A stretch of 64,000 nt of DNA from Fragilariopsis cylindrus CCMP1102 (taxonomy: Eukaryota; Bacillariophyta; Bacillariophyceae; Bacillariales; Bacillariaceae). Location of the stretch: contig FMBT01000012.1 of the NCBI GenBank assembly GCA_900095095.1, positions 1 through 64,000 on the forward strand. The letters are read 5' to 3'. Below are positions 22,674 through 61,477 of this stretch, piece by piece. The notes beneath the pieces were generated by a model. That model was given only the letters and a program-made list of their open reading frames with translations. It had not been told where the DNA came from and ran no database searches. Within the stretch, counting starts at the first letter, position 1, and each line of letters opens with the position of its first letter. The position numbers and the translations under genes were made by a program.

Positions 22674-24615
22674 TCACATCTCGTCAGATTTAGAAGCATC
22701 CATCTCGTCAGATTTAAATATTCCAGATTCGAATCCAGATAAGTAGCTAGCTGTTGACGGTCTGCGACTAGCACGTCTAAATGTACTATCATCTTTTTTC
22801 TTACTCCGAGACGATTTCCTACTCTTGCGACTTTGAGAAGAATGTCCACTGTTCCGGTTTAGTGGTGCTGATGTGGACGCCGCCATTCGACCAAAATTGG
22901 GAGGTGGGACTGCAGGTAGTGGCTTTGCTCCATTCATAACATGATATTCCACAAACTGTTCTGGTATCTCCTTCAAAGCCTCAGCGATAACCTCGGTTGC
23001 ATTTCCTCCGAATTGCTTAAAACTAACAAAAGTTACAACTTCCCTAGCTATTGGAATACCCCGTGAGTCGCGTAGCATCCCGTTTTTGTCACCACACAAT
23101 TTTTTGACCGAACTGAAGTCATTGTTACCGACACCGATAATTAAGATTGAAAGCGGTGCATCTTCTGCTGCGGTACATATCAAGTCAACTGTCTCTTGTA
23201 ATTCGGTAAAGTCTCCAGCCGTAAACACAACGAGTACCGTGTAGCATGGACGTTTTTTCGACAAACGAATAGTACGAAAGGTAGCCGCTTCGATCAATGC
23301 ATTCAAGGATGCCTCGTCACCTAATGAAAAATCAGTATTTCAACGACGTTATCATCATATGCCTTCAGTAGACTTTTTCCTTCGCACAGTCGCTCTTTCA
23401 TTACATAGCAGTCACGATCCCTGTCATTTATTTTTGCTCCCAACCCCCACAGGGATGAATGCTGGCCTCTGGAAAAATTCTCTGTGATAGTTCCCAGCTT
23501 TTGAATTCCTGCTTGATAATCGTTCAACCAATGGTTCGCAGAAAAATGTAGATTCTCCTCCGTTCCCCATTCCCCATTAGCGACGCTACAATCAATACCA
23601 ATCATCAAATCGAGTGAGGTACCACCACTTAGATATTGTAGCATACTAGGAACAATTATTACAGAAGCGTTGAGAACTTTCAACAGCCCAACCTGTTTTA
23701 ATTTACTACCCCGGAACCACTTTTTCTTTTCCTTCATAACAATAAATACAGGTATGCCACCATCCTTCGATTTTTCAATAATTTCAGCCACCGTCGATTC
23801 GACAAAACCTAGAATAACATGTGTGCTTGAATGCTTTTCATAATCCCATATAGTAATCTTTAGTGGATTGGTCTGATCATCGTTACATAGGAGCTGTAGA
23901 GGTAACCGAGCTTCATTCCAAACTGGATCGAGCGTATATTTAACTACTTCGCTTTTCCATACGATCTCCCAGCTTTGGTCGTCCTTGTTTAGTCGTTCTA
24001 TCCGAAAGTATGGTCTGCACTTATCAAGTACCTTTGACGACCGATCAACTATATCAGTGATAATATTATGATCTTTTACAAGATCTTGACAAGAGAAACG
24101 GAATTCTAAAACTTCACGATTCTCGATGACCTCTTCCCCAATCACGACTAGATATGCATTATCTTTACCCAAAAGTTTCGCTAAGCAATTTCCCTTCGCA
24201 CCCATAAGCTGTCCTAGCGTAAAGACGCAACCCCCTAAGTAATCGTGTTCACCTAAATGGGTTGCATACCTCAAATCTTCATCGTAAACACGTAATACGA
24301 ATGTCTGTTCTTCATGAAAAACAAACTCTGATCGAAATCGATGTTTGAATGTAGGATGAGCACACGAACGAGAAACCTCGGTTCGTCCCATTTCTTCTTC
24401 TTGTCTTCCTGGTAACTTAATTGGGATTCCGTTAGCACCCAAAGCCTCGTATCCGTCAGGGACTTTCCATAAGACACAAAACGCATCCGCTTGACTTAGT
24501 AGGTCTTTTTTGGGAAGATTATGACATTTGATGACCAAATCCAATTTTATTACAGGAGCAGTGGTTCGGGATAACCATGCGAATTTCCGAAGTCTTTTTT
24601 ACCTTTATTCTTCAT
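22674..24615 (-). CDS. Copine-like protein (two C2 domains plus copine vWA)
   Basis: Copines are calcium-dependent phospholipid-binding proteins. C2A spans LDLVIKCHNLPKKDLLSQAD through RFRSEFVFHEEQTFVLRVYDED. C2B spans YFRIERLNKDDQSWEIVWKSE through LKITIWDYEKHSSTHVI. The vWA/copine domain begins LDLMIGIDCSVANGEWG and continues HSSLWGLGAKI, CYTVLVVFTAGDF, APLSILIIGVG and REVVTFVSFKQFG. A Ser/Lys/Arg-rich tail closes the protein. The MIDAS-like DxSxS site reads DCSVA, so its third position is replaced. One frame step lies near 23310 (VEI to DFSLGDEAS). The start at 24615 (MKNKGKKDFGNSHGYPEP) also needs one step; the N-terminus is therefore tentative. Confidence 0.85.
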
Positions 24616-25107: not shown

Positions 25108-26737
25108 ATGCCGTCGCAAATGAACCGACATACCTTGTTTTCATTACCATCACTACTATGTCTTTTGTTTGCGGTCTTTGCCTGCATTCTGGATGAATGC
25201 GATGGATTGACGACTAATATATCACACATCGAGCTGTAGCAGTATTTGCTTTGATGGAAAGTATGAAACGGAATCAAAAGTTTGCAATACGTGTTCTTGA
25301 ACAGGATCCCAGCATATTTGAATCTAGATCAACGAGATCGTGCCTTTGCTAGAAATTTACTATCAACTACAGAACGTAGAATGGGACAAATTGATCAAGT
25401 TATAAAAAGTTTTGCTCACAAAAAAGAAGACAAGAAAAAGAATACAAAAATTCGCCCACATGATATTCTTTGTGAAGCAGCGCTACGGATAGGTGCGACT
25501 CAGATATTATTCCTAGATGTTCCTACATATGCAGCAGTTTCTGAAACAGTAGAAGCATTAAAAAATCATCCCAAAGTTAAGGTATCGAAGGCGCAGATTA
25601 GTTATGTTAACGCTGTTTTAAGAAATATTGATAGAGAAGGAAAATCTAGACTGGATGCGACCTCAACACTTGCCAACGTAGACACATGGCTTGCTGATCA
25701 GTGGATTCAAACGTACGGTAAGGAAACAACAGAGAAAATGGTAGGAGCAGCCATGTCTCAATCTCCGGTGTTCATCACAGTCAATCATAATCATCAAGAC
25801 AATTCAGAAACGAAACAGCAGGATACAATTCTTGATAGATCGGAAAGCATTAGGGATGTGTTTACGTCGATTGCCGGCGAAGAGGAAGACGACGACGACG
25901 ATTTCGAACAAGTAGAAGTAGAAGCAGAACTGCTTCCAATTGGATCTATTAGAATACCTGCTATCGTTGGTGGAAGTGTATCAAAGTGGCCACTTTATGA
26001 TGATGGTGCCTGGTGGGTTCAAGATGTTAGCGCAACACTACCAGCAATAGCACTATTCAATAGCTTTATGCATAAACGGGGGAAAACAGCCAAAAGATAT
26101 TCACGTTGTAGATCTATGCAGTGCTCCTGGTGGAAAGACAGCACAATTGTGTTCGATGGGTTTTGGTAAGGTTGATGCCGTAGAAATTAGTAAACGCCGG
26201 AGTCGATCACTACATCAAAATCTAAAAAGACTCGGGATGGAAAAGTTGTGCAATGTCTGCGTCGAGGATGGGACAAAGTTTCAGCCATACATATCAGAGA
26301 ACGACGACGGAGTCCAAGGAGTATTGGTGGACGCTCCTTGTAGCGCTACTGGTCTTGGAAGTCGACGTCCCGATGTCCTTCGAAAGTCAATTAATCTCGA
26401 TGAACTTATATCAATACAACGAGAACTAGTTGTCCATGCAGCAAATAATATTCTAGATGTTGGAGGTGTTTTGGTGTACGCAACATGTTCATTATTGAAA
26501 CAAGAAGGGGAGGATCAAGTCGATTGGTTACTCTCTCAAGATGTGACAGGGAAAGATGAAAATACGGAACTATTATCCAGCACATTAGAGACTATACCTT
26601 TTGAAGTCGGAGAAATACCTGGATTCGATGATTGTATTGATGAAAAGGGTTGGCTTCGGGTTATACCAGGCGTTCTTCCTGGGTCACTGCAATTTTGTGA
26701 CGGTTTTTTTGTAGCTAGAATGAGGAAAATAGCATAA
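25108..26737 (+). CDS. RsmB-type 16S rRNA m5C methyltransferase, secretory/plastid presequence
   Basis: This is a NOL1/NOP2/Sun-family methyltransferase with the NusB-like N-terminal domain of RsmB, the enzyme making m5C967 in bacterial 16S rRNA. From ATG 25108 there is a signal-peptide-like leader (LFSLPSLLCLLFAVFACIL), fitting plastid import. The NusB-like region follows: RAVAVFALMESMKRNQ, LNLDQRDRAFARNLL, RRMGQIDQVI and YVNAVLRNIDREGK. The catalytic domain has WWVQDVSATLPA, VVDLCSAPGGKTAQLC (SAM motif), VEDGTKFQ, GVLVDAPCSATGLGSRRPD (PC motif with catalytic Cys), VLVYATCSLLKQEGE (TC motif) and the closing FCDGFFVARM. An acidic insertion lies mid-protein. Frame steps occur near 25227, 25305 and 26100. 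Confidence 0.88.
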
Positions 26738-40038: not shown

Positions 40039-41797
40039 TTAATCGTCGTCTTTGTCTGGGTACTGCTTATTTCCCTCCATGATGACTTTCATCGTTACGC
40101 CTATTCCTTCTCTAGTCCAACGTTTGCGGTTCCTTTCAACCATTGCTGCAAAAACTCCACCCCTTGTATCACCAAAGGCGCCAGTATCATCCAACATACG
40201 GGCCAATGGTAAGAGATAAAAATCTAAGAATCCGATTTGATTGTTGAACCAACCATTCATTGGGTCGTCACCTTTCTCTTCGATGAAAGCCTTCCGTAAC
40301 TCCAAGTATAAGCAATCACTCCATTTGGCCATTTGCTCGAAGCCCTGAAGATTATGTGCCACGTCTGCTGATTTGATAATCGTTTCCATAATGACGGATT
40401 CACGCATATCATCAATCTCCTCGGGAGGAGGGAGTTCATACATTGATAGAATACTAACATCATCGGATGACGCAGAGCACCTTTTGTTTGCATCGTACGT
40501 TTCGATAGATGCTCCAGACAAGTCCATAGTCCTACGAAAACCAAGTCGTTTATTCCGAGGAGGAGTTATTGCTGAGGTGTTTGTTCCGACCTGTGAAAGT
40601 CGACGATGAAACTTCAAAGCTTTTCCTGACAAGTTGGCTTCAGGATCCTCTGATGATGTGTCACTCCCGTTCTCTTTTTTCTTCATCCTATGTGACTCCC
40701 TTTTTCGACCGTTGCTATCATCTTCATCTTGGGACGCAAGGGACTCAAGGGATACACTTGAATCGTCTTGTTGTTCAGATTTAATTTTCATTTCATCAAG
40801 AATTACCTCAGCGCTATCAGAGTTCGATTTACGCTTTTGAACTTCCTTCATCACCTTCCGCTCAACTGTTTCGTAGGGGTCACCAAATGCCTCCTTCCAT
40901 TTCGTCTTACCCAATTGTGTCCGCTCTGGAGATGCAATATCTGTGGTCAAAACCTTCGTTCGTTTGTTCGGTTGTGAGTGTAATTGTATTCGAAAAGATT
41001 AATAGATTCAAGTTTAGAGGATACGAATTCAATACAATAAGATGCAAAAAATATCCGCATATGAAATCTGCGGTAGTCGGACCGTTCAGAGAAAATAAAA
41101 GGTAACGTACCATATTCACACAGGCCATACGAAATCTGCGGTAGTCGGACCGTTCAGGGAAAATAATACTACGAAACTTGCCATATTTCTTATTGAGTAG
41201 TTTAGAAAATCCAATAAATAGTGATTCATTCTCCGCAATAGATTGATCATTATACTTAATGGCAAGCTCTTCATCTTCCAATGCTAACTGACGATTAGGA
41301 ATACCACGATGATCAACATCATGGATTAATGCCGAAAATAGCATAGCAAATTGCATCAATGGGTCATCACGAAACCCATAGGTATGAACAGGCTTTTCAT
41401 CGGGGTACACGTGGACAATCATATCAACTAATTTGTTCGCTGAGATAGTAACATGATAACAATGTTTGAAGTTATGGTAGGGAACATCATTGTACCCCAC
41501 AAGGATCGTTGTAACATACTCCTTAATCTCATTAATTGCCTCATCGTCTAATTGTTCAGGCCATAAATCATTATTGATCAACATCGACCGACAAATCGTA
41601 GTCGTACTAAGGTCGGGAAACATCCCCCGAGGTTGGATCCATGCAACAATCCGAATCAATAGTAAAGCCGTAATCCTAGTTGCAGTCTCATCGACATCAT
41701 CTGATGGAGCCGTTGCTGGGTCATTCGACAAGCCAGTATCACGCCAATCTTGACTTGTTATTCCCAAGGCAATCCCAATATAACGATTTATAGGCAT
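40039..41797 (-). CDS. 3',5'-cyclic-nucleotide phosphodiesterase
   Basis: A class I cyclic nucleotide phosphodiesterase catalytic domain. Exon 1 has VPYHNFKHCYHVTISANKLV (metal His), MLFSALIHDVDHRGIPN (HD pair), AIKYNDQSIAENESL and YRRFRMACVNMV. The intron at 40954-41110 (ATG|GTACGT ... AACGAAG|GTT) joins NM to VLTTDIASPERTQLGKTKWKE. Exon 2 has a Ser/Glu/Lys-rich insert of about 120 residues. It then has IIKSADVAHNLQGFEQMAKW (last metal Asp) and NQIGFLDFYLLPLARML. All metal ligands are present, so it should hydrolyse cAMP or cGMP. The open frame begins only about 70 residues before the domain, so no membrane or cyclase domain is visible; upstream exons may be missed. Confidence 0.88.
41059..41170. 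repeat. Exon fragment duplicated into adjacent intron
   Basis: A block GAAATCTGCGGTAGTCGGACCGTTCAG plus GAAAATAA occurs at about 41062-41100, inside the phosphodiesterase intron, and again at 41128-41167, in exon 1. The two copies differ by very few bases, period about 65. Confidence 0.85.
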
Positions 41798-42679
41798 TAT
41801 AATATTAACAAGTAGCTATTCCTTTTATATTCAATATATGGTACTAATGATTTCGAAGTATTCTATCAAAAATCTTTCCTTGCGGCATGTATCGACAGAA
41901 AATCAAGTCAACTATGAAATGGGAAAATACTATGGAGTAACAAAACTTATCTTTTTACCTTCCACTCTTTTTGCAGTGTATTAGAAATGAAAAGCGAACT
42001 TCTCTTAGTCTTCGGTTGGTATTACTGCTTTTGAGCAAGTAACTTATATCATTTCACAAGTACGCTCGCAATAACGACATACAGTACTGTACGCGGAGCG
42101 AAGTGGAAGCAGGACCATCGAAGAACACCATAAGAAAAGGCTGAAGATGCAGTGACATTTAAGAAGTTTTGATGAGAAGGTCATTTTACATGTCCGTGAC
42201 GGCGGTCACTACTAACTTTAGTACTTAGTAGGGCCTAGTAGAACAACAGACGATATTATTATGTACTTGATTCTACATTTCGCTAGCCTGGCTAGTGCGC
42301 TATTTTCGTGTGAAGCTAAGTACTTTCAATAAAACGGCCTATAAAGCGGAAACGCGTTCATGTTTTCAAAATACATAGAAGAAACTATTTTTTGTTTTTA
42401 AATAAAAGAAAAAACACATAATATTTGAATCAAACTAGTCCGGTCACTTTTTTGAAGCAGTCCCAGCAAATTTAAATACCGTGACTAACCGTTGTAAATT
42501 AAGAACAAATACAAATAATAAATTAAATCTTTTTTCACACCACATACCTCATCATCACAAACACATTAATAGACTAGTATAGCATACAAAACAGAATAGA
42601 ACGCCCAATCGCAATAGAAATTGCAATCAGTTAACACTACTTTTAGCCATCGCCTTCACCCACAATCGATCCTGGGATC
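41798..42679. other. Intergenic, no gene seen
   Basis: Upstream region of the phosphodiesterase and left flank of the transposase-like element. I looked for terminal inverted repeats matching sequence past 46.86 kb and found none by eye. Confidence 0.5.
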
Positions 42680-45600
42680 ATGGAAAATCGAAATCCAAAC
42701 ACATACCGGTATTTTCCTCCAAATCATCGACAACAATCATTCCCACCACCGCGTATACCACCGTACTTTCCACCAATACAACAACAGCAACAGCAACAAC
42801 AACAACAACAACCCCACAAGCACAAGCACAAGGACCATATTCTACTGCTACAAGCTCGCATAGAACTAATGTATTTCTACCTCCTCCTTCATACCGGCGA
42901 CAATTCAATCCGTATCATCATCTACAACATAATCGATTGCCTCCATCCCATCCAGTATATCCTATTCCAACTCCAAAACCACCAAACGAAGGAACAGATC
43001 TATTGAAAATTATGGTAGAATCGATGAAATGGACTGCCTCAAGTATACCAGGTCCATTATATGATTATATTGAAAAAGAAGGAAGCAACAAGGAGAAAGG
43101 TTGGTTACGAGAGATGGCAGGTATATCAACATCAAGAAGAGGCAATAAAGAAACAATGGTTTACTATGACTTACTTTTGAGATGTGCTCCCGAAAAACAC
43201 TTAGAATTAAGATAAACCTACACTTCTATCATGCATTTGATATGAATGCAGAATCACTCCGGTATGCGAGAAATAATAGTACTAAGAGAAATATAGATGT
43301 GACGCCAACATCAATTTTAAAGAGAAGAAGATATAGCCAACCAACATCAACATTAACAACACCAACACCAACATCAACAACACCAACAACAGCAAGTCGT
43401 GTTAGTTTATCACCAAATAATTCAGCTTCGAAACACATTTCATTTGAATATGCAGCAAGCACACAACAAAATAGACATACCATGAAAACACCAAAACCAA
43501 TAACCAACACAATATCACAGTTTGATGAAGCTCTCAAACAAAAAACTAGTCTGATACCGGACAGAGAAGAAAATGTACTGGTGATATTAAAAAAGGGTTG
43601 AAAGTAGTGTATTCGAATTGGAATGGACCACGATTTGATACGGAAGCATTAGTGAGAATGATTGCACCAAAATCAGTACAGATATTACGAAATCAACGAG
43701 TTGAAAGCTAGAAAAGAATAATGACTTACTAGTAAACCTTCAAGCCGCATCAAAAAGAGATATAATGGCAATCGACAGGCACAGAACTATTTTGCAGCAG
43801 GTATTGCAATGACACCTAACTGTTCTGTGAATAGCGCAGAGACCTTTATTGCTTTTTCTAGACAGAGTCTTTTCTATCAATTTGGATTCGATGCATCAGC
43901 AACTGATATAGCGAGAAGCTCCCCATCAAGTACAACAGTGTCGAATTCTCTTGCAAATTTAGCTGCCAGTTGTCTCAATCAGCGATTAAAGCAAATGAAA
44001 GATGCAAAGCATGTATTTCTAACATGTGACAAAGGCCATCGAGCAGGTGTAGATCATTTTGCTAAAGTGATATCATGGTATGACCGAAAGAAAACTCAAA
44101 CCGAATACTTCACACTTGATATGGATCCTGCCGGCAATAGTGATAAAGAATGTGCACATGCTGTCAAGTATTCGATGGATCAAAAGGAAGTCGGACATAA
44201 ACTGTCCGGACAAACAACAGATAATGGGGGGGTGCAACGTTAGAAAGTTTCGGTAAAGAGTTGAATGTACAAGAGATTACAAATCAAGACTATTATTCTA
44301 TTGCAAATTGCACTCTACATGACTTATCTTTGGGTGTATCTGTACCGGTAGAGAAACTTTTTGGACTGGGTGGGGTAGGCAAAAATAATTTCATGCAGAT
44401 GCTGCATTCTATATTTGATTTACAGAAATTTTACGGTGGTGGTGAGGTATGGAAGCATGTTATGAGAACTGAGATGGATACATGCAACATGGAGAATGAA
44501 GACGTACCAAGAAATTTACACAGCCTGTTACGACAAGATGGTGGTGGCTAAGCATATCATGCCATTTGCCATTACATACTGGAATGTATATAAGAAATAG
44601 CACAATCAACAGTAAATGCATATGTGAGTTCATCATATGGTAATATTGTAGCATCAAGCATCGATGCACTAATGAAAGAAGAATTATTCAAGGGACATAC
44701 CATATTTGTTCGATGTTATACTAATTTTTAATCAACCCTCACTTTGATTTCCTACAAAGCAAAGGGTGTCGATCAAAGGCAGCCGGATTCAATTCTGAAG
44801 CACTCCTTGTTCGAATGTTTTTGATCTACCAAGACTTCGATTCCGTGTTGGAGAAGGATGGAAACTCAGTCCTGAATTTGACTTATTCAATCAACATTTG
44901 GTGGCAGATCGAGAGCCAACAGTCAAAGAAGCAAGACAAAAGGAATATGATGATGAGAAGAGACGGCTGAAAGGACCAAAAGACTACATCAAACGAATGA
45001 AAACAGCAGATAAATTGAAGAAATCAATATCAAAAGAGCTGAAGAATACAGAAAATACACAAAAGGAGATCGATACTATCATACAAACAAAACCATCATC
45101 TTACTGGATGTCATTATCAGAGATAAGAAGTAAACCCACTCTCGAAGCCATCATAGCGCTGTTTCGACTGTCAACCGAACAGATAATAGATGAAGTGACA
45201 AGCAAAAAAAGGAATATGAGAATTTCAGAGAAAAAAATAGTGATTGCAGATATAGAGCCAGTCGACAAGGATGGATTTGATCGACATCATACTGACAATG
45301 CAACGCGGATTATGAAACTTGAACTACAGCTAGAGGAAATTAATTTAGGATTGAAGCAGACATTATTTGAATTGTTTCAGTTAGCACTTACCGAAGATAA
45401 AACAAACAAGGATCTAATGAAAGTACCGCTCAAAGATCTCTTTCAACAGGAGACGTTAGAGGGAATCGACATTACAAACGATACAGTCGAGGATGAGATG
45501 GGCGAGTTAGAAACAGAAATATCAAATATTGAATCGTTCATAGAAAAACAAGAGCTAGAAATACAAAATAGGAATCCTTTGCCAGAAGACGGAATGATCA

Positions 45601-46856
45601 ACATAAATAGAAACAACAACATTGTTCGACGACAAGGACAAGATGCAATAGTAAACTTACCACCAAATGAAATCGAAACACGTTCAAAGGATCAGATCCA
45701 AACTGACTATAACAACAAGCTTTCACGTGACGCTACAATTTTATTGGAGAAGGATATAATGTGGTGAGATTACATTTTGGACGATGGGCAATAATCTTAT
45801 ACACTACGGGTTAGCATCAGAACCACCTATCTCATCGATGGTGGCAAATTTGATGCTCGGAGACCATTAGCACATCATCATAACGAAAGCACTTACTTCT
45901 CTACAGTACACAAGAGAGATATCAACCTCAATGCATTCGCTGCATTTCTACAGGATGAATGCAAAGAGTCGTCATTAATAGAAGTACGCGAACAACTGTA
46001 TTATATCAAACACAAGGATGCCATAACAAAAGTAGCAAATGGTGAGAAATTGTGGACAAGTTTAATACCATGTGTGAAAGACTTACGTGAATTTATTGAG
46101 GATGTTGTACTCGGCATAGCATCAAATCAACAGTTTGTTGAGCTATCTATCAAGGAAGTTCAGAACGTAGTCTGTCAGAACAGATCTGCTGCAACTAAAT
46201 CAGTAATCGGTATCACTCGTGCATATTTGAATCGAGAAAAGGCGGCTTATGTAGCAGAAGAGCTCAAAACACATCGATTGCATGCCAATCAATACACGGA
46301 AGAAGGAATCAAGGGTGTGAGAAAGATGAAATTCAAATCAAAAGAAGAGGATTTAGACTCTAGATTTATTGCAAAAAATTCCATTAAAACGATTGCATTA
46401 ATAAAATGCGTAAACGATCTCAATGAAACAGAAAGCTCCGAAGATGAAGCAAGGATACGCCGTTTAGCAGCAAACCTAAAGACACAACAAGACAGCTATC
46501 AACGAAAGCTGGACGCAGCAAAAAAGAAGAAGTATGATGAGGGACGGCTGATAAAGCGAAAAATGAATGAATCACAAAGACGCAGAGATGCCGACGAAAC
46601 TGACATATCAAAAGGACAAATACAATTCACAAAACTACAGAAGAAACATATCGAAGGCGTGAAAGAAGAACTTGTTGCAAGAAATCATGGATTGACGAAT
46701 GATCTAAATATAACACAATTGAAAAAGATTCTAAAACTAGCAGTTGAAAGCACAGATGGCGAAGAGTATGACAAATCCTTTCATCCTAGAAAAGATAAAC
46801 TTCACTCGCAATTCGAACATTCGATTCTATACGCAGATAGAAACAGGCCAAGATAA
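42680..46856 (+). mobile_element. Broken hAT-like transposase-derived element or gene
   Basis: Successive open pieces on one strand read as a large protein interrupted by several breaks. The N-terminal part is Pro/Gln-rich and then has LLKIMVESMKWTASSIPGPL and KEKGWLREMAGISTSRRGNK. The central part resembles an RNase H-fold transposase of hAT type: KHVFLTCDKGHRAGVDHFAK, EYFTLDMDPAGNSDKECAHA, LSGQTTDNGG and SIANCTLHDLSLGVSVPV, with LHSIFDLQKFY after it (compare the hAT pattern TDNA...CxxHxxNL). The C-terminal part is Lys/Glu-rich coiled coil. I know similar multi-copy sequences from algae, but no terminal inverted repeats or target duplication are visible here. It may instead be a host gene derived from a transposase. 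The breaks may partly be sequence errors, as in neighbouring genes. Confidence 0.5.
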
Positions 46857-47549
46857 TATAATATTACAATATAAATAAGACTTACCTACTAGTTGAGGAT
46901 GCATGTTTACCATTGTAGATTAATTTGATTGATTGGTTTGATTGATTGATTTGTAGTTGTAGATTGATTTGATATTGATTTGTAACTGCGTTTGATTTGT
47001 ACTTGTTTTGAATTTGTGTTTGACTTGTACTCGATTTGGAATTTATGAGTGCTTTACACGATACAACGTGTATAGCATTCAGCTTGTCGTGATAATAAGA
47101 CGTAAAGCTTTCTTTTTTCTATTTTCTTTTTCTTTTTATTCGTGCTTCCGGATTTTTCCAAGCGTTAGATGCTATATCATTCCCAGATCATTCACACGAT
47201 TGTGATAGTATCATGAAATTTGGAGTGGTATTGTCATTTTTATTCAGGAGAATTCAAAACGTAGTGTTGGTGCCATTTTCTTCTTTAAGTCTGATGTTGA
47301 TGCTGTTGTTTAGGGTGTGATTTGATGTCATTTCAAAAAAAAAGGAGAACGTCAATTACATCACGTTCACAATTCTTAGATTTTTTCTTCGACTTGCCTA
47401 AACAGCTGCGACCATATTGTGTCGTAGTGACATATTTTACTTAACTAAAAAGATAAAATCACCTCATTTTTTCAAAAAGAATGTCTGTAAAATTTCAAAT
47501 TGACATTATTCCCGTAAACAAATGCATACATAGTCGTTTGTAGGTACTC

Positions 47550-47705
47550 TGTATCAAAATTTTAATCACACGAGAGACAGCTCCTATACTTACTTAGATC
47601 AAAATTTTGATCACACGTACAGACGGCTTCCATCATCGCCTGTTGAAGTATACTTACTTAAGTCAAGATTTAATCACACGTATGAGACAGCTTCCACGGG
47701 AGCAT
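47550..47705. repeat. Degenerate direct repeats, three copies
   Basis: Three copies of (A/G)TCAA(A/G)ATTTT(A/G)ATCACACG at about 47551, 47598 and 47662. Each is followed by a GAGACAGCT- or AGACGGCTTCC-type block, and CTTACTTA precedes two of them. Spacing is about 47 and 64 bases. Confidence 0.7.
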
Positions 47706-47954
47706 ACTTAATTCCTCCGTAATCCTATAACTTTATACGTGCTATCGTTGAGAGTTTTGATGAGTGCTTAAAATCCAACCACAAAATGCCAAATGTACAA
47801 AACAAATAAAAATTAAGCGAAGATTTTAAGGGACCAAAGCGCTATTATAGTAATCCCTCACAATAGCACGCCTGTATTTAACGTTAGACGGAGGAAGTAG
47901 TAGTAAACGAAAATTTTATTCGTGACATGAATTGTCAAACTGTTGGAGTATACT

Positions 47955-48058
47955 TAGCTTTCTTCTACGTAGAAAGTGTACTACTTCTACACGAATTCTC
48001 CGTACTGATGATCTACAAACAACCCCTTTTTTAGCTTTTTCTACGTAGAAAGTGTACT
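47955..48058. repeat. Duplicated palindrome TTCTACGTAGAA
   Basis: The block TTAGCTTT-(C)TTCTACGTAGAAAGTGTACT occurs at about 47954-47981 and 48031-48058. Its centre TTCTACGTAGAA is a perfect 12-base palindrome. The pair lies about 550-630 bases upstream of the orphan gene at 48585. Confidence 0.75.
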
Positions 48059-48584
48059 GCAGGCTACAGCAATTCACAAATATTTTAAAACATAAGATAT
48101 TTCATCCATAATTTTTTTTTAAACTAATCAAAAAAAGCAATCTAAAAAGAAAAATATATCATATCGGCAATGGTGATATTATTACAACTACCGTAAGCTT
48201 TGTAACGTCTAGCCAGTACCATGATCAGCCAATTCATACCATGTTTATCGTGTTACCAGATTTAAAATTAGTATATCATGTCATTAGCAACCATTAAAAT
48301 AATGATTTATGATTGTAAAATTTCGAAAATAATTTCAGTCGCCTTGCGCCATTAACACATTATAATAATATTCTTTGGACTTTGGCTTGCGACCATGGAC
48401 AAAAATTTCATTCCATTCAAACAAGCATGTCAATCTTATTAAAGTAAGTCAGTATCGCATTGCTATCTTTCCCTCGTTTTTGTTGTCATGTACTGGTGTT
48501 GAATGTTGAATGTTTGAATGTTGTTGTTGTTGTTGTTGTTGTTCTTTCATCACAAACAAAAAATTAACTACACTTACATTCAAC

Positions 48585-49481
48585 ATGCCTACTTATTATC
48601 TCATACCGTACCGCAATGGTACAAAGATTGGAGAGAAAGAGGATATATATCCTTTGCTTTTAGACGATGATAGAGATCGTGCTATCTTTCCCGAAAAGCT
48701 TAAACAATGGACGGTCGAAATTCATTGTGGTAATACAAGAATGAAATGTGTTGCTTGTCAGAAATACATACATGATAATGTCAAGTTTGCCAGCCTATCT
48801 TTGTATCTTATGTATGATGCTGATACACATATTCTGTCTCACAATACAAACTACCATCCCTTTACTGGCTTATCCTATCGTAACAACGATGATGAAGATT
48901 TGATATCTCTCCCTCGAGAATTTACACTCCCTCTTCGTGAGGGTATGTTCTTATCATTCAATCTACCTGCTAATCCAAGACGATGGTGTTATTCAATGGA
49001 TTTCTATGTTGGTGCATTTGAAGAAGAAGAAGAAGGCGTCGATCCTGATATCGATGATGAGGAAGATGATGATGATGATTTGGTCGATGATGAACCACCA
49101 TGTCGTCGTTTAGATCTTCCACCTGTATCGATTCTACCACCTCTCGGACCAAGAACACCCTGTAACGTACAAGAAGCTTCTCGCAATCCAATCAATGATG
49201 TTGATGATCCAATCATCGGTGTTGATGATGTCTTGGCAACACCACATCGTATGCCTGATCCTCCCGGCAGTACGCCTTTCAATTTTTCTTCTCCACTACC
49301 AACAAGGTTGAGTTCTCATCATATGCTCGCAAGATCATCAGAAGATGGAGTAGTCATTGATGATATTGCTGCCGTCCGAGCTGAATTAGCAGCGACACAC
49401 ACACAACTACAAGCTGCTTTGGCTCGGAATGCCTTATTATCGCCTTTGGAAAAGGGTTATATATCACTAAACTCTCCATAA
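48585..49481 (+). CDS. Orphan protein, acidic with Cys pairs
   Basis: 299 codons from ATG 48585 (MPTYYLIPYRNGTKIGEKED). The open frame extends to 48510 but only through a poly-Cys stretch encoded by a TTG run, which is unlikely to be translated. The N-terminal 150 residues look folded (QWTVEIHCGNTRMKCVACQ, LSLYLMYDADTHIL, PLREGMFLSFNLPANPRRW). A Glu/Asp run, a Pro-rich linker and a short helical end (IAAVRAELAATHTQLQAALA) follow. The CxxC near residue 60 could bind metal. No family recognised. It lies between a transposase-derived element and another orphan gene. Confidence 0.55.
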   Translation: MPTYYLIPYRNGTKIGEKEDIYPLLLDDDRDRAIFPEKLKQWTVEIHCGNTRMKCVACQKYIHDNVKFASLSLYLMYDADTHILSHNTNYHPFTGLSYRNNDDEDLISLPREFTLPLREGMFLSFNLPANPRRWCYSMDFYVGAFEEEEEGVDPDIDDEEDDDDDLVDDEPPCRRLDLPPVSILPPLGPRTPCNVQEASRNPINDVDDPIIGVDDVLATPHRMPDPPGSTPFNFSSPLPTRLSSHHMLARSSEDGVVIDDIAAVRAELAATHTQLQAALARNALLSPLEKGYISLNSP

Positions 49482-49676
49482 TTGACGACTCCCCCTATGA
49501 CGCCCAACGGAATGTCCACGCTGAGTATACAGCAACAAAACAACCCATTTTCTATGTATTCTGTACAGTAACGTTACTGTTAATCGAAAAACAGTAATAA
49601 TAATTTCATTCATTCATTCATTCATAAAATATAAAACATAAAATATAAAACAGAAAAAGAAAAAAAGATATCAACA

Positions 49677-50738
49677 ATGGCGAATACAAGCACTCCTATC
49701 ATTAAAGAGGAAGAAGAAGATCCCTTCAGCCTGCTTCCACACACGACAACATCATCATCCTTATCATCCTCATCCGAAGAAGATCCCTTATCCTTCTCAT
49801 CATCATGCCGTGCCTTCTGGAATAACACGACAACATCGTCATCATCATCATCCTTATCATCCTCATCAGAAGAAGATGAAGATGAAGATGAAGATGATGA
49901 AGCTTCGTCAACACTTTTTGTCCTTAATCTTCCTCCACACATGACAACAACATCATCATCAACATCTTCATCGATTTCTTCCATTACTACACTGGCGAAT
50001 ACAGGCACTCCTATCATTAAAGTGGAATCATCCTCATCAGATGAAGATGAAGATGATGAAGCACTTTTTGTCGTTAATCTTCCTCCACACACGACAACAT
50101 CATCATCATCCTCTTGGTCAGCACCTATTGTCCTCAATCTCCCTCCACACATGACATCATCATCATCAACATCTTCTTCTATTTCTTCCATTACAACACC
50201 CTTCCTCGAACAACCCCTACTACTGATAGAAATCCTCGAAGACCGAAATATCTACACAGATGACATAGAAGCCTACCAGTATTTGGTCCACCATCAAGGG
50301 CCCGGATACAGTGCAACATCTTATTCCTTCAATGTTGTCGTCCACTATCTTCTACCGAATGTACAAATTCAGCATACCGTAAATATCAACCATCAAGACG
50401 ACGATGTACACCTCTTGTTCTACAACAACACCCATCCTATGGGCATCAGCATCAACGACATCTTCGTCGACGACAATGCCGATGATTTCATGAGCATTGG
50501 CAGTGCATCATTGATTATGTTCGACCGTAACGATGGTTTTGACACCCCTGCACCTACTGCAGCACCTACGTCTCTTCTACTGGACCCATCGGCATCAATC
50601 AATCAATTGTACGACCATCTTCTACTGAACCCCGATGATTTTGATAGCGCCCCTACTGCTGCAGCCCCTACATACAACCATCTTCTACTGGACCCTTCAT
50701 ACGTTTACGACCCCAACGACTTCATCATTGAGGTCTAA
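49677..50738 (+). CDS. Orphan Ser/Asp-rich protein with internal duplication
   Basis: 353 codons in one frame. The first 190 residues are a degenerate internal repeat: ANT-x-TPIIK, a Ser run with EED(ED)n, then (F/V)VLNLPPHMTTTSSS and SSISSITT. The unit appears about 2.5 times. The second half looks more ordered (LEQPLLLIEILEDRNIYTDD, SFNVVVHYLLPNVQIQHTVN). It ends with (N/S)HLLLDP repeats around APTAA. No family, signal peptide or membrane span recognised. The minus strand also stays open for 189 codons (49622-50191), a by-product of the TCATCA-type repeats. Confidence 0.5.
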   Translation: MANTSTPIIKEEEEDPFSLLPHTTTSSSLSSSSEEDPLSFSSSCRAFWNNTTTSSSSSSLSSSSEEDEDEDEDDEASSTLFVLNLPPHMTTTSSSTSSSISSITTLANTGTPIIKVESSSSDEDEDDEALFVVNLPPHTTTSSSSSWSAPIVLNLPPHMTSSSSTSSSISSITTPFLEQPLLLIEILEDRNIYTDDIEAYQYLVHHQGPGYSATSYSFNVVVHYLLPNVQIQHTVNINHQDDDVHLLFYNNTHPMGISINDIFVDDNADDFMSIGSASLIMFDRNDGFDTPAPTAAPTSLLLDPSASINQLYDHLLLNPDDFDSAPTAAAPTYNHLLLDPSYVYDPNDFIIEV

Positions 50739-52088
50739 GTTTAAGCAGAAGAGAGAGAGAGCTATATTGACGTTCTTCCTCTATTATGATATGTCTGTTG
50801 TCTGCTACGATACTGTATCTATTATGTAACATGTTACAGTTTGTAGTGTTAATAACTAACTAGTTAATAGTATTTTAATATATGATAATACGTTGTTTTG
50901 GGTACCTTCATGGTATTTTTTCTATGTATGAACATAAAATTATTCAAATCTGAACGTTTTGTTATTTTTTTGTTTTTTATTGGCGATCGCAATAATTACT
51001 TAGATGTTTTTTGTTTCCACGCGATAATAGCGCCTTTGAACGTTTAGCGAAATGTAGATTCGTGATTGATCATCGTGACTGATTATATATGTACAGTAAA
51101 GTAGAATGGAAATAATGTATACACACACTTTTTCAAAGTTGTTCTTTTTCTTTTTTACAACAGAAATACATAATAGTATCAACACATGAACATTCCATGG
51201 CTAAATGAGACATAAGTTATCACTACTAAGTAGTTGAAAAAGGTACAAGAAGCACAAATACAAGTACGAAAGTAATTTCCCTCGTGTATCTGATCTGTGA
51301 TTTGCTTCCACATGATCGAACAATACTATGCATCACAGTCAAAGAATCACAATGAATGGTTGAGTTATGGACCTTCTTTTGTAGTCGATGTGTTGAACTT
51401 GAACCCTTGTCTCAATGTGTCTCATCATATCACTAGTCATTCAAAATTGGAATTTTCTGTGGAGGTGTTGCAGATAAATTTTGTATAACTACAACAACAA
51501 CAACAGCAGCATCAGATAAACTCTGTATTGGATATTATAGTATGTTGATAGATAGTATTGTTGGTTTTGTTACCAGAACAGTTGAAGGTTTCCACTGCCC
51601 CACTACTGTTATCAATGATGTGTATACTGCACTGTAAGTAGCGTTTGTTAGACGTCGTATTCTTCATATACATTCGGGGGGGGGAAAGAGAAATATATGA
51701 CATTTTTGCGAATTTTGCTTAACTTTCATGAATTTAGCAGAATCTCCCCCGAATTAGTAAGGAAGATCTCTGCTTTCACCTGAAATGCACGAAATCCGTC
51801 GTCTTCGTTCAAGTTAGTTGTTGATGTGTGATAGTCCGCGGACAAAGTTGTCTGTATTCTTTTTCCGGAACAAGTATCAGATGTATGATGTATATCGTTG
51901 ACAGCGAAAAGACCCACTGGGTGCATCAGAATAATACGAGCTGTTCGAATTCCTTCTCGTTGCATGTATTTCAATCTACGAGCACGATGTATAAATAAGA
52001 CGACACTAACGAAACAAACCTAAGAAGAAGGGACAGGCTGCCGCTGTAATTCGCTGAATGAAACTTTGTTTACATCCCGACGATCAAG
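50739..52088. other. Intergenic, 1.35 kb, no gene called
   Basis: AT-rich. Contains a G9 run (about 51676) and small open frames (51297-51488 plus; 51726-51974 minus) without recognisable features. Confidence 0.5.
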
Positions 52089-55462: not shown

Positions 55463-57431
55463 TTACTTAGCACCATCTGCATCCAACGCCCCAGCATCTT
55501 TTAGAGCATAGAATGCTTTATCCGCCAGCGACATGGATTCAAGATCTCTATCTTCCGCGACTGGCTCTGCAACGGGTGTTTCTTCTTCAACTTCTTTCTC
55601 TTCTGTCGCAGAGGCCTCTACCACAGGGGAGGATTCATCTGCTACTTCGCTTTCCTCGGTAGTTTCTACTTCAAAGCTTTCTTCTCTAGCCTGTGATTCC
55701 TCTGCAAGTTTCTCCATGAGTGATTCATCGAATTCTCCCTCACCATCAACAAATTTCACCTCAAGATCTGCCTTTTCTGCTAAGAAGTCCATCACTGCCT
55801 GACGTAGTAGTGTTGCTTCAACCCTACTGCGAATTTGTGTTTCATCAAAATCCTCCTTTGAATTTTCCGCGTCTTGTTTGATCGACTCCATTTGTTCTTC
55901 AATCTGGTAATCTTCTACCTCAATATTTTCAAGTCTTGCAATTTCATCAGTGGCCATGGAAACTTTGAAGTCCTTAATAATATCGTCCTTGACGATATTC
56001 TTATATTTCAAAAAGTTATCTGAGTTAATTTGGTTTTTAATTTCGTCGTCATTTACTCCGTTGTTTCGCATATCTGCCATCATCATTGCAAACTTTTCTC
56101 GTGCTTGATTAGTCACAAGCGTATCCGGAACTTCCACATCCATAACTAGTGCTAAAGACTTTGCGAGGGCAGCATTACGTGCAGGTGTATATTCCTTGGC
56201 ATCTTCGGTATCGACAGCCGTTTGGAGTTCCTTTTTTAGGGTTTCAGCAGTTAATCCTGCACGAACCTCGTTGGCAAATTCGTCTGTTACTTCCGGTAGA
56301 GTACGTTTCGATGCTTCTAAAACCGTAACATCGAATATTGCTGTCTTTCCTGCCAATGTCTTATCTTTAAGGGCCTATTATTAATGCAAGGGAAGATGTT
56401 GTCGGAAAGGAAAATGGCAAAATTGTGGTGAGATATCGATCGATCGATCAGTAATGAGATGATGATTGAAAAGAGAGAGAAAAAAGGAGGCTATATTGAA
56501 AGAAAGAAAAAATTCATTGACAAGCTGCGATTTGCTTTGTCGACGACTTTGAACTTACTTCTGGAAAGGTTACTTTTACTTCTTTCGTTTCTTCTACCTT
56601 GGCATTGACTAAACCTTCAACGAGACCTGTCATGTACCGTCCATCTCCCAAGACAACATCAACTCGATCACCACTGGCTGCTTCAGGTAATTTTTCACCT
56701 TTTTGGCCATCATCTGTTGCCATATATCCCTCCATATTGACAACGCAAGCATCTCCCATTTGTAATGCATAATCTTTATCTTCGATGGGTTCCAACGTAA
56801 CATATCGTTCTCTCAAATCACCAAGAGCTTTGTTGAATTTTACTTCGTCAAAAGGTTTGCGTGTGTACTCTCCCTTCATACCCATGTAGGGTTTGTCTGA
56901 GCCCTCTACCGCCGTCCATTGAATTTCAGGCCAAACATCACATTTGACAAACATGTCAAAGTCATCACCAGGTTTAAAGTTGTCGGCTAATTCTTCGGCG
57001 GCTGTTTCTAATGCTGGTTGACCGATTGGTTCTAGTCCATGTTCTTCCTTAATAGCAGACTCAATAAGTTCGGATAGTAGTGTATTGATGGCTTGTACTC
57101 TCAATGCGTTGCGTCCTCCCTTGGCGGCCATAGCATTTTCTAATACGGCGGGTGGAATTTTACTACCCTTACGAAAGCCAGGAAGTGTAATTGTTTTTGA
57201 AAGTTCGGTACAGACCTTATCGTATGCAGCCTTAGTTGCCGAACCGGGGACACCGATTTTGATTCTTACTGCACTGTCTGGAAGACGTTCCAAAGTGGAA
57301 GCCTGTAGAGATGTAGAGTATCCATCGTATGACAAACGATTGGAAGTGAAGGCCAAATTTAGAGGGACAAACGCTTGTGTTGTTGTGGCAGCCAAAAGCA
57401 GACCAGCTATGATGCTTTGATGGATTTTCAT
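55463..57431 (-). CDS. tig: Trigger factor, plastid-targeted
   Basis: A ribosome-associated chaperone and peptidyl-prolyl isomerase. Exon 1 (56559-57431) begins with signal peptide MKIHQSIIAGLLLAATTTQAFVP (an ASAFAP-type site, AF). It then has the ribosome-binding domain (LPGFRKGSKIPPAVL, the GFRxGxxP loop that docks on the ribosome) and the FKBP-like domain (YALQMGDACVVNMEGYM, FPE). The intron at 56375-56558 (GAA|GTAAGT ... AATAG|GCC) leads to exon 2, with ALKDKTLAGKTAIFDVTVLEA, the end of the PPIase domain. The helical C-terminal arms follow (EVTDEFANEVR, MDVEVPDTLVTNQAREKFAM). A Glu/Val/Ala-rich C-terminal tail of about 90 residues is additional to bacterial trigger factor. No frame breaks. 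Confidence 0.94.
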
Positions 57432-57957
57432 GATGACACTGTATGATGATGATTCTATCGAAGACTATATTATGGAAGTTATTTATTGAGAATGGATTCT
57501 GTTTCGATCGAAAAGACGATACAATTATTTAAACTACTGGTACAATAAAAAAGAAATTAACAAGATGTTTTCGAGTTTCAGACACCACACATCACAAGGA
57601 ACAAGCTGCCTTCCACAGACAGACTTGTTTCACAAAATTACCTACTAGTAGACAGTAACGTTATCGTGATGGAATTCTTCTTTTTGCTGTTGTGTGGTAC
57701 GCACTACACAAACTGATATCCACGAATGAGAAAAAAGTATGAAGTCAGCCCTTCCGTCCGATAATATTTTGCCACAAAAAATCGATCACATTTGATGAAT
57801 TTTCTTTTTTTTCAAGTTTTCTTCACTTGACACAATTTTTTTTTTTGTAAATACACGCTTCTTACATTTCAATTTCATCTCAAAAATTACATTGTACTTG
57901 TACTCTAATAGTTTTTGCTAGCCAGTCTATCGGAATTTAACAAGGCAAATAATCATC
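57432..57957. other. Divergent intergenic region
   Basis: Between trigger factor (minus) and the SET/JmjC gene (plus). AT-rich with T runs; no motif recognised. Confidence 0.5.
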
Positions 57958-60900
57958 ATGTCCCATCCACAACAACCCCTCTTTCAATACCTACGACATG
58001 CTACAGATGAAAAAAGGGGACGATGTCTTGTCGCCACTGATGAAATACAAAAGGCTCAATTGATATTTCTGGAGCGACCCGTAATTGCCATGCAGTCCAT
58101 CGGAAATTCTCATGAGGGTGTCTTGGTGTGTAGCTACTGTATGGCCTTTTGTGGAAGACCTAAACAGGCACTCGATGTGGCTTCGGATCCTACTCTCTTA
58201 ATGGAAATCGCGACAACGAACGGCGATAGCGATGGCGATAGCGATGGCAATGGCGATGACGGTCTCAACAATAATGCAATTGAAGATAAACACACTATAC
58301 ATTGCTGTAGTCACAAATGCGGTCACATCTATTGCAGTCGTGAATGTCAACAAGATGACTGGGAATGGGGTGGGCATCAAGAATTGTGTACAGGAACGAT
58401 CCCGGAGCAGGAAATGGATACTAACAGCATCGGCAAAGAAGACGAGATCCCTTCGATGCATCCCCTCTTACAGTTTAAAATGCATGCACGAGAAACTAAT
58501 GAAATCTTCCTATTGGTTGCCACCTGGCTGGTTCGGATACTCAAACAAAACTTGCCGTATTATGACGATGACAGTATGCACGATCATCCGTATACTGACT
58601 TTCAAATGAATGCATGGTGGGACGTCAAGACGACAGAATTATTGGCTCAACCCGGTGACAGAACAAGTAGCATCGCTGAAGCGAAGTCATTAGAATTAAT
58701 CTTAAAAGAACTATGTAGCGAATCTCACTCGTTTCTATCACAGGCATTACTATTGAATCAACAAAATGATGAGGTAGTTTGTTCTTTTAGTAACTCACTG
58801 TGGCTTACACCGCTGGGAATGGCAAGATTGGTCGGTTCACTGGAACAAAATTGCTTAGGAATACGAAGAAAGCATGCGCTTCAACACGGCATAATGAATG
58901 ATACCGACTTGAGACACGGGCTACATACAGAATTGATTCAGTGTCTAGAAGAAGCTGGATTAATTGGAGACGAAGAAGATGAATCCGAAGCCGACGATGA
59001 CGACAAATGCGGTGACGATGAATGCCATGACGACGAATGCAATGACACCAAATGCGATGACGCAAAATACGACGATAACAATGATGTTCATACCGATAAC
59101 CGTAACCATAACCGCAACAATAAAGACGATGTTGATGACGACGTTGACAATAACGATAATGATAACAACGACGATGGTGTTGATGATGATTCGGGGATGA
59201 AAAAAGGTGTTGTATCGGAATATTCTCATGATGAAATTGCGGACTTTTTTGCAGGCTTGACAACAGATGACGAATGGTACGATTTCATTCGGCCACTAGA
59301 TGGGATCTCACATTATTCGACTGCTACCAAGATGAATCACTCTTGTGATCCGAATGTTATCTTAGTGTACGAGACGCGAGGTTGGGGAAGAGATCATCCC
59401 TTAGTTGCATACTGTATCGCACTCAGAGATATTGCTCAAGGTGAAGAATTGACAATTAGCTACATTACTTCCGAGGATCCATACGAGAAGCGACAAGCTG
59501 ATTTGGCGAATTATGGATTTATTTGTACATGTTCTAAATGTAGTCGAGAAAACGACGATACCATTGAAGGAGAGAAATATTGTGTAGAATGCACAAACTC
59601 CCTAGATGAAGACGACCTATTCGGAGACGACGACGACGACGACGACGGTGGTCAGAATGTCAAAGAAGCAAATAACCATATGGAGTTCCACAAAAAGAAA
59701 GGATCGGTGACGAAGAAAGAGAAGATTATGATGACAATCAACTCGAACCGATTCTAAACAATTTAAATCAGGCTTCAATACCAATCGCTTACTTGGCACC
59801 AGCTTTGAACTACGTTATAAAAGAAGCTTCTTCTCTTTTGCAAGCTTTGCGAAGTACAAAAGGAGCAGAGAACGAAACGATCATCGAAGATTTGCTAGAG
59901 CAGAATATACATGCATTGAGAGACCGGGATTTCGCATCTTGTCGTATTGTTGGATCCGGCTTAGAACTAATTCTTTACAATCAACTTGAGTCCAATGGAT
60001 CGTGGTCAAGTTCATTATATAGATCATCTTATTGGTTTGCATCAATCACAGCGTCAATTGGCTACGCTAATGAGGGAAGCTTCCTGGTTTCAATGAAATA
60101 TTTAGACAAGGCAACTATATTGGGACTAGACCGGAAAAAATTAGAGTTCTATTTTGGATATGTGGAGCTATTCGCGTCACAAATGGCAGTTGGCCCATGT
60201 CCGATAGCTGTCGACTGTAAGATCTCTGACTTTCAAAGTCCCGAACTCAAAGAGTTAGTTGCTACCAATGCTCTTTCAAAGCCGATACAATTTCCGGTCA
60301 ATGAGATGATTATTACTTCATTCGATCAATCCATTGCATGTGTTATCCGAGACGTAGCATCTGAATGGCCAGCATTGAGAAAGTGGAGAGCTATGGATGT
60401 TTTGGCAGGGAGTTCGGGCACCGTTTGGTACCCATCGAAATCGGTTCTATGACAAATGGAATGGAAGAAGCTGTTGTTACATTTCGACAATTTGTATCAA
60501 AATATCTCTCTACAAGTTCTACGAAAGATTGCTGGAGTCTAGACGATGCTTAATGGATAGAAAATCCGTTGCTTACATTGCGCAGCATCCCTTGCTTGAT
60601 CAAATACCAGCTCTTTGCTCAGACATCGATATGAATCCTTGTGGAGTTCAACCAACAAATATCAATATTTGGATGGGAACAGGTGGAACCCGTACTCCCT
60701 TGCATTTTGATAGTTACGATAACTTACTTGTACAGCTTGTGGGTGCGAAGTATGTTCGACTTTACGATAGGGAATGTTCGCCACAACTTTATGTAGCAAA
60801 GACACTTCTTATGGTGGACAAGGAAACATGAGTGATTGGATTGTGAACGGGAAGACTATGAAGGCATCCATTAGCTAAGATACAACTACAAAGAAGTATT

Positions 60901-60991
60901 GTTTTCCAGGCGATTGCTTATTCATCCCAGCCCGGCATTGGCATTATATCCGGTCACTCAGTACAAGCGTAAGCGTCAATTATTGGTTCTG
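57958..60991 (+). CDS. SET/MYND methyltransferase fused to KDM8/JMJD5-like JmjC oxygenase
   Basis: The N-terminal 600 codons (57958-59757) are a SMYD-type protein. The SET start [20 protein letters not shown] is followed by a MYND-like Cys cluster (VCSYCMAFC ... [20 protein letters not shown] ... HQELC). The SET core then has [35 protein letters not shown] and the post-[12 protein letters not shown]. After one missing-base step near 59730 the frame continues without a stop through [20 protein letters not shown]. It then enters a helical domain like that of JMJD5 and a JmjC domain: [52 protein letters not shown] (iron HxD at 60703-60711), [13 protein letters not shown], and [20 protein letters not shown] (distal His), ending SVNYWF. 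A Cys/Asp-rich insert lies at 58970-59090. Further steps occur in the JmjC part. Two adjacent genes remain possible. Confidence 0.7.
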
Positions 60992-61477
60992 AAGATTCCA
61001 TTTCGGTTGGTTGATTCAAAACATTTCCAAGTAGCATTAAAAGAAGCGATTGCTGAGTTTTGGGTTGTTTGGGAAGTTTTACAAAACTATGCAAATATAG
61101 ATATTGAACATACTTTAATAGATTACCAATTTGCTTGTATTCGGGTAATTTCATTACTACTGTAGTATATCATCTAAAACAGTTGCCTCCAAGAGCTATT
61201 TGGATAGAATACTGAATCTGGAAATTAACGGTAAAATCCTACTGTTGTAGCATTTCCCGTACTGAGTAAGGACGCCCCTTTGAGTCGTGTTCATAGTTCA
61301 TTTTTCATTAATTACCACGAGCATATATAATATTGAAATACGGCCTAAAAGTTTCATGTTCAAATGTGGGTGTGTAAAATGCAAACGATTCAAATACATC
61401 GACAGCACTGAGAATCGAGATTAAGAAATAACTCTATTATTGTATACGAGTAGCCAATCGCAGAAAACTCAAAAAAC
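60992..61477. other. Intergenic, no gene seen
   Basis: 486 bases between two tandem plus-strand genes. Nothing beyond AT-rich sequence. Confidence 0.5.

What the first reader, a model, noticed from the sequence alone, without database searches (positions are those of the whole stretch)
57958..60991. Apparent fusion of a SET/MYND methyltransferase with a JMJD5-like JmjC oxygenase
A SMYD-type module ([16 protein letters not shown], CxCxxC post-SET) runs into a KDM8/JMJD5-like module with its iron ligands HFD and HWH intact. The only interruption at the junction is one missing-base step of the kind seen all over this window; no stop-free UTR, promoter-like gap or new start with a signal lies between. 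A single chain would combine protein-lysine methylation with 2OG-dependent hydroxylation or demethylation, two activities usually on separate proteins. The Cys/Asp-rich insert in the SET half is also unusual.
Basis: partly seen in the sequence, partly recalled or inferred. Interest (0 to 1): 0.72.

Follow-up and report, generated by a model that had tools for sequence, protein, structure and literature searches.

The report
Diatom SMYD–JMJD5 fusion gene
In this diatom a gene for a protein-methylating enzyme most likely runs on into a gene for an oxygen-using enzyme of the JMJD5 type, making one two-headed protein; a fusion of the same kind was reported in another diatom in 2011, so this is a further example, not a first.

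Summary
Frame 1 from ATG 57958 encodes a SMYD-type SET protein (Pfam SET 9.3e-11; nearest solved structures SMYD3/1/2). From about 59706 to 60991, in frames 3, 2, 1 and 3, comes a JmjC domain whose three searched pieces all match JMJD5/KDM8 best. A codon model finds coding on both sides of 59703/59706 with a 2-nt gap. No ATG opens frame 3 before 60093, and no good intron donor was found. A second assembled copy, contig C90, differs by one base at four other frame breaks and reads through them, so such breaks are probably often assembly errors. It is identical at the junction break, so DNA alone does not prove the fusion. Decisive for novelty: PMC3145265 (2011; passages) lists a Phaeodactylum tricornutum gene model under both SMYD and SET+JmjC, with two-domain transcripts confirmed by cDNA PCR (data not shown). 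The fusion is very probably real and a new member of a known kind. 'Methylase plus demethylase' is doubtful: human JMJD5 hydroxylated arginine and did not demethylate H3 peptides (PMC5862942, passages).

The parts
57958..59703 (+). SMYD-type SET module, from first ATG to the frame step (frame 1)
   Evidence: Pfam SET 9.3e-11; PDB SMYD3/1/2; HMM coding 57967-59703
58129..58389 (+). MYND-like zinc finger, split by an acidic insert (CSYC ... CCSHKC ... YCSREC ... GGHQELC)
   Evidence: motif positions; zf-MYND C-terminal half E 0.04-0.13, below cut-off
58960..59193 (+). 78-aa Asp/Asn-rich insert with 4 Cys in the SET half (30 D, 13 N, 6 E)
   Evidence: that it is low-complexity filler is my inference
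59335..59592 (+). SET core ([16 protein letters not shown]) and post-SET Cys (CTCSKC, CVEC)
   Evidence: motif positions; alignment to SMYD3
59673..59708 (+). junction: frame 1 passes to frame 3 by one -1 step; holds the only run of four or more equal bases in 59600-59760 (AAAAA at 59692)
   Evidence: 25 best change points, HMM, homopolymer scan; no difference from C90 within 150 nt
59706..60338 (+). connecting region of unknown family (frame 3)
   Evidence: HMM coding 59706-60413; no Pfam or PDB match in this part
60339..60514 (+). JMJD5-like N-terminal part of the JmjC domain (frame 3 then 2; C90 has one base more at 60407 and is open there)
   Evidence: PDB JMJD5 6.8e-6 with the C90 copy
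60547..60813 (+). JMJD5-like catalytic core with HFD (60703-60711), frame 1
   Evidence: PDB KDM8 5.1e-15; Cupin_8 2.5e-15
60900..60993 (+). JMJD5-like C-terminal part with HWH (60936-60944) and stop TGA, frame 3; true end uncertain
   Evidence: Cupin_8 3e-9; PDB JMJD5 4.1e-7; coding signal in another frame to 61135

Best explanation
One gene of about 1,000 codons encodes a protein with an N-terminal SMYD-type SET methyltransferase and a C-terminal JMJD5/KDM8-type Fe(II)/2-oxoglutarate oxygenase, joined through a connecting region of unknown family. The junction frame step and most breaks in the JmjC half are read as missing or extra bases in a noisy assembly (inferred). Proposed mechanism (inferred): the SET half transfers a methyl group from S-adenosylmethionine to a lysine, and the JmjC half hydroxylates a residue, most likely arginine as in human JMJD5, on the same or a partner protein, so that one chain couples two modifications.
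For: Coding signal runs in frame 1 then frame 3 with a 2-nt gap. The 19 codons of 59700-59757 score +8.9 bits in frame 3 and -7.5 in frame 1; the latter includes a set penalty of -6 for the stop, so about -1.5 without it. Frame 3 has no ATG from 59676 until 60093, and GC is 0.42 at the junction against 0.31 and 0.34 in the flanks. Among 39 frame-restoring intron candidates of 41 nt or more, the best donor is GTCAGA, none GTAAGT-like. C90 has one base more or less at 23338, 26064, 61795 and 60407 and reads through in one frame there (659, 559, 325 and 292 aa). P. tricornutum bd1647 is listed under SMYD and under SET+JmjC, with two-domain transcripts confirmed by cDNA PCR, data not shown (PMC3145265 passages). 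JMJD5 residues H321, D323, H400, N327, K336, Y272 and W310 (roles from PMC5862942 passages) align with identical residues.
Against: The junction step, and the PDEase step at 40945, are identical in C90. Two breaks of the JmjC half (60514-60547 and near 60800-60830) are in both copies too. One-base differences between copies could also be real allelic differences. No transcript, proteome or diatom relative could be searched. The JmjC core found no relative in genome contigs or viral contigs, nor the SET half in viral contigs (not scanned in genome contigs). The sequence of bd1647 was not available, so orthology rests on domain types and order. The two other genome columns of the paper's table read 'not found' for SET+JmjC.
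Confidence: 0.8

Rival explanations
1. Two adjacent genes: a SMYD methyltransferase ending at 59757 and a separate JMJD5-like gene.
For: Frame-1 stop at 59755-59757 in both assembled copies. SMYD and JMJD5 proteins are usually separate (recalled). In the same genome the three other SET matches have no Cupin_8 match within 100 kb in the list, and a stand-alone JMJD5-like frame exists.
Against: Only 2 nt between coding blocks; no in-frame ATG before 60093, 387 nt past the step; frame 3 scores as coding across the stop; two-domain transcript reported in P. tricornutum.
Confidence: 0.08
2. A decaying fusion gene: the frame steps shared by both copies are real, and the JmjC half (or the fusion) is a pseudogene in this species.
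For: The junction step and two breaks in the JmjC half are the same in both copies; the SET half (57958-59703) has no break and the rest has several.
Against: Coding-like codon use persists in most of the JmjC half and catalytic residues are kept. Many of the breaks lie in 60407-61463, where the two copies disagree with each other, as they do in other patches of the window; C90 opens the break at 60407.
Confidence: 0.08
3. A real -1 step at the junction is read by programmed ribosomal frameshifting, giving SMYD alone plus some fused product.
For: The step is -1, the two copies are identical there, and an AAAAAG run lies in the step interval.
Against: No X XXY YYZ slippery heptamer in 59600-59760; one-base differences at frame breaks are common between the two copies.
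Confidence: 0.03

Closest known systems
Phaeodactylum tricornutum SET+JmjC gene model bd1647 (PMC3145265, 2011; passages seen)
   Same: Diatom; SET listed as SMYD; order SET then JmjC; two-domain transcript reported.
   Different: Its sequence and JmjC subtype were not available here, so JMJD5 type and orthology are untested.
Human JMJD5/KDM8
   Same: Best solved match of all three JmjC pieces; metal and 2OG residues kept; Glu238 of the arginine pocket kept.
   Different: Sits behind a SET module; Tyr243 position is Thr, Ser318 position is Thr; the region before the JmjC domain was not recognised as that of KDM8.
SMYD1-3 methyltransferases
   Same: SET core and post-SET cysteines align.
   Different: MYND split by an insert, an Asp/Asn-rich insert of 78 aa, and a JmjC module downstream.
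Neurospora crassa JmjC-SET protein (mentioned in PMC3145265)
   Same: Pairs the same two domain classes.
   Different: Opposite order according to that paper; no sequence examined.

Membership tests
SMYD (SET and MYND) methyltransferases | SET domain of SMYD type with NHSC motif and post-SET cysteines | tested here: met
   Pfam SET 9.3e-11; the first 27 of 43 PDB rows are SMYD1-3
SMYD (SET and MYND) methyltransferases | MYND zinc finger within the SET region | tested here: inconclusive
   C-terminal half E 0.04-0.13, under the cut-off; no MYND match at E<=1 in the whole module; cysteines present but split by an insert
SMYD (SET and MYND) methyltransferases | Lysine methyltransferase activity | not testable with these tools
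   needs an enzyme assay
JMJD5/KDM8 | JmjC domain closest to JMJD5 with HxD...H and 2OG residues | tested here: met
   best PDB hits of three pieces, searched apart, are JMJD5; the pieces lie in different frames
JMJD5/KDM8 | Glu238 and Tyr243 of the arginine pocket | tested here: inconclusive
   Glu aligned, Tyr position is Thr (residue roles from PMC5862942 passages)
JMJD5/KDM8 | KDM8 N-terminal domain (PF24472) | tested here: inconclusive
   not found (the 14 control genomes gave nothing either); the human N-terminus typed from recall aligns no better than shuffles, 869 of 1000 reach the score
diatom SET+JmjC fusion (bd1647 kind) | SET then JmjC in one reading unit | tested here: inconclusive
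   adjacent, coding nearly continuous, but one frame step shared by both copies
diatom SET+JmjC fusion (bd1647 kind) | single transcript | not testable with these tools
   no RNA data

The most novel reading that the evidence does not exclude
A single diatom protein that methylates lysine with its SMYD half and hydroxylates arginine (or another residue) on the same target with its JMJD5 half, wiring S-adenosylmethionine, oxygen and 2-oxoglutarate status into one modification step.
Probability: 0.25. Interest if true: 0.5.

Novelty: new member of a known kind. Interest (0 to 1): 0.3.

Why it matters
It adds a second diatom genome to the 2011 P. tricornutum report and points to the JMJD5 subtype for the JmjC half. 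That shifts the expected chemistry from 'writer plus eraser' to 'methylase plus hydroxylase', which can be tested with one recombinant protein.

Tried and rejected
Intron at the junction: 39 frame-restoring GT-AG candidates of 41 nt or more (15 best printed), best donor GTCAGA; the neighbouring trigger-factor gene shows a GTAAGT in the printed stretch that I take for its donor. Judged unlikely. Slippery heptamer: none in 59600-59760. KDM8 N-terminal domain in the connecting region: alike by eye, but it failed the shuffle test and was not found by Pfam or in the PDB; not claimed. Relatives: JmjC core in genome contigs and viral contigs (29 and 4 pattern matches, no relative), SET half in viral contigs (3 pattern matches, no relative). 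A stand-alone JMJD5-like frame (L003, 443 aa) is present; which gene is the JMJD5 orthologue was not settled. A light-harvesting protein searched in the PDB to fix the lineage matched several algal groups and did not decide it; plastid rbcL was not found. Paper searches. Of PMC3145265 and PMC5862942 I saw passages; of the others, listings and abstract beginnings only.

Full report
Setting. The window is G000:C597:1-64000 of a 67.9-Mb, 818-contig assembly. The genome gives 27 silicon-transporter matches, exon by exon, best 1.1e-226, and 104 light-harvesting matches. That fits a diatom; no species name was available, plastid rbcL was not found, and a PDB search with one light-harvesting protein did not decide the lineage. 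Many matches come in pairs on two contigs, so the assembly probably holds both haplotypes or duplicate contigs.

Observation. Frame 1 from ATG 57958 gives a SET protein: Pfam SET 9.3e-11; the first 27 of 43 PDB rows are SMYD1-3. Zinc-finger cysteines of MYND type are present but split by an acidic insert, and Pfam sees only the C-terminal half, below its cut-off. The JmjC half falls into pieces in frames 3, 2, 1 and 3. Three pieces were searched apart, the first from the C90 copy, and each has JMJD5/KDM8 as best solved relative. By those alignments and the residue roles in PMC5862942 (passages), H321/D323/H400, W310, N327, K336 and Y272 are kept, S318 is Thr, Glu238 is kept and Tyr243 is Thr. 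The residue numbers on the PDB chains are my count from chain lengths.

Junction. A codon log-odds model trained on 4,878 codons from nine open frames of the same genome places its 25 best change points from frame 1 to frame 3 within 59673-59708. A simple frame-switching HMM with penalties that I set gives 57967-59703, then 59706-60413. Over 59700-59757, frame 3 scores +8.9 bits and frame 1 -7.5, of which -6 is the stop penalty. Frame 3 has no ATG from 59676 until 60093. An intron is poorly supported.

Are the steps assembly errors? I ran the HMM on six regions: three chosen because neighbouring ORFs overlap, the locus, and two neighbouring genes as controls. It shows five abrupt steps with 19 or fewer bases between coding blocks: 23340, 26056-26074, 40945, 59704 and 61796. 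At three of these five C90 has one base more or less (23338, 26064, 61795; near 26064 there are also four substitutions within 150 nt), and the same holds at 60407. C90 reads through these four as single frames of 659, 559, 325 and 292 aa. The other two of five, PDEase 40945 and the junction, have no difference within 150 nt. So one-base differences at frame breaks are common here and most simply are assembly errors, though real allelic differences are not excluded; the junction itself is not cleared by the second copy. The copies differ in clusters: 60835-61463 holds 19 differing positions, while none lies between 52331 and 60407. A break between 60514 and 60547, and one near 60800-60830 (by eye), are shared by both copies.

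What is in print. PMC3145265 (passages) reports a P. tricornutum gene model with a SET and a JmjC domain, with such transcripts confirmed by PCR on cDNA (data not shown), and contrasts its order with JmjC-SET of Neurospora. Its table lists bd1647 under both SMYD and SET+JmjC; the other two columns, which I take from their ids to be T. pseudonana and E. siliculosus (the header was not in the passages), read 'not found'. Searches listed no other paper that I recognised as being about this fusion; they are listings, not full reads, and the library lacks most subscription papers. The present locus is best filed as a further member, orthology inferred.

Function. PMC5862942 (passages) reports that human JMJD5 showed no demethylation of the histone H3 peptides tested and is an arginyl C-3 hydroxylase. 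The present JmjC half keeps the metal and 2OG residues but only one of the two arginine-pocket residues named there, so hydroxylation is likely and its target uncertain. On the other side, the abstract beginning of PMC11041705 (listing) links Kdm8 loss in mouse heart cells to more H3K36me2. The 'antagonistic writer and eraser' idea, also raised in the 2011 paper, is therefore possible but less likely in my view.

Genome context. Outside C597/C90 the SET half matches three other places (C265 twice, C164); none has a Cupin_8 match within 100 kb in the list of 31, which counts only the best candidates. A stand-alone JMJD5-like frame occurs on C229 and C311; the C229 one has JMJD5 as best PDB hit, 1.6e-20. 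The fused gene is thus not the only JMJD5-like gene here.

Noticed in passing
window 42267-51056: An 8.8-kb stretch absent from the C90 copy, with inverted-repeat ends (arms 42269-42312 and 51018-51061, 44 nt, 75%) and diverged partial copies on C32, C221 and C297; six ORFs scanned showed no transposon family at E<=0.01. Probably a mobile element of unknown type.
   Followed up: partly
window 55466-57464 (minus): Trigger-factor gene (Trigger_N, FKBP_C, Trigger_C) in two frames with 142 non-coding bases between, probably an intron; it lies upstream of and divergent from the fusion gene.
   Followed up: no
window 40042-41815 (minus): PDEase gene with an abrupt frame step at 40945 shared by both assembled copies, the same unresolved kind as the junction.
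   Followed up: partly
window 60926-61135: Coding signal in another frame beyond the TGA at 60991-60993, inside a patch where the two copies disagree; the protein may have a longer C-terminal tail.
   Followed up: partly
L003 1165-2493 (C229); a similar match lies in L004 (C311): Stand-alone JMJD5-like frame with Glu and Tyr spaced as in the arginine pocket of human JMJD5 (VEMGGSY; my reading, not aligned), unlike the fused one.
   Followed up: partly
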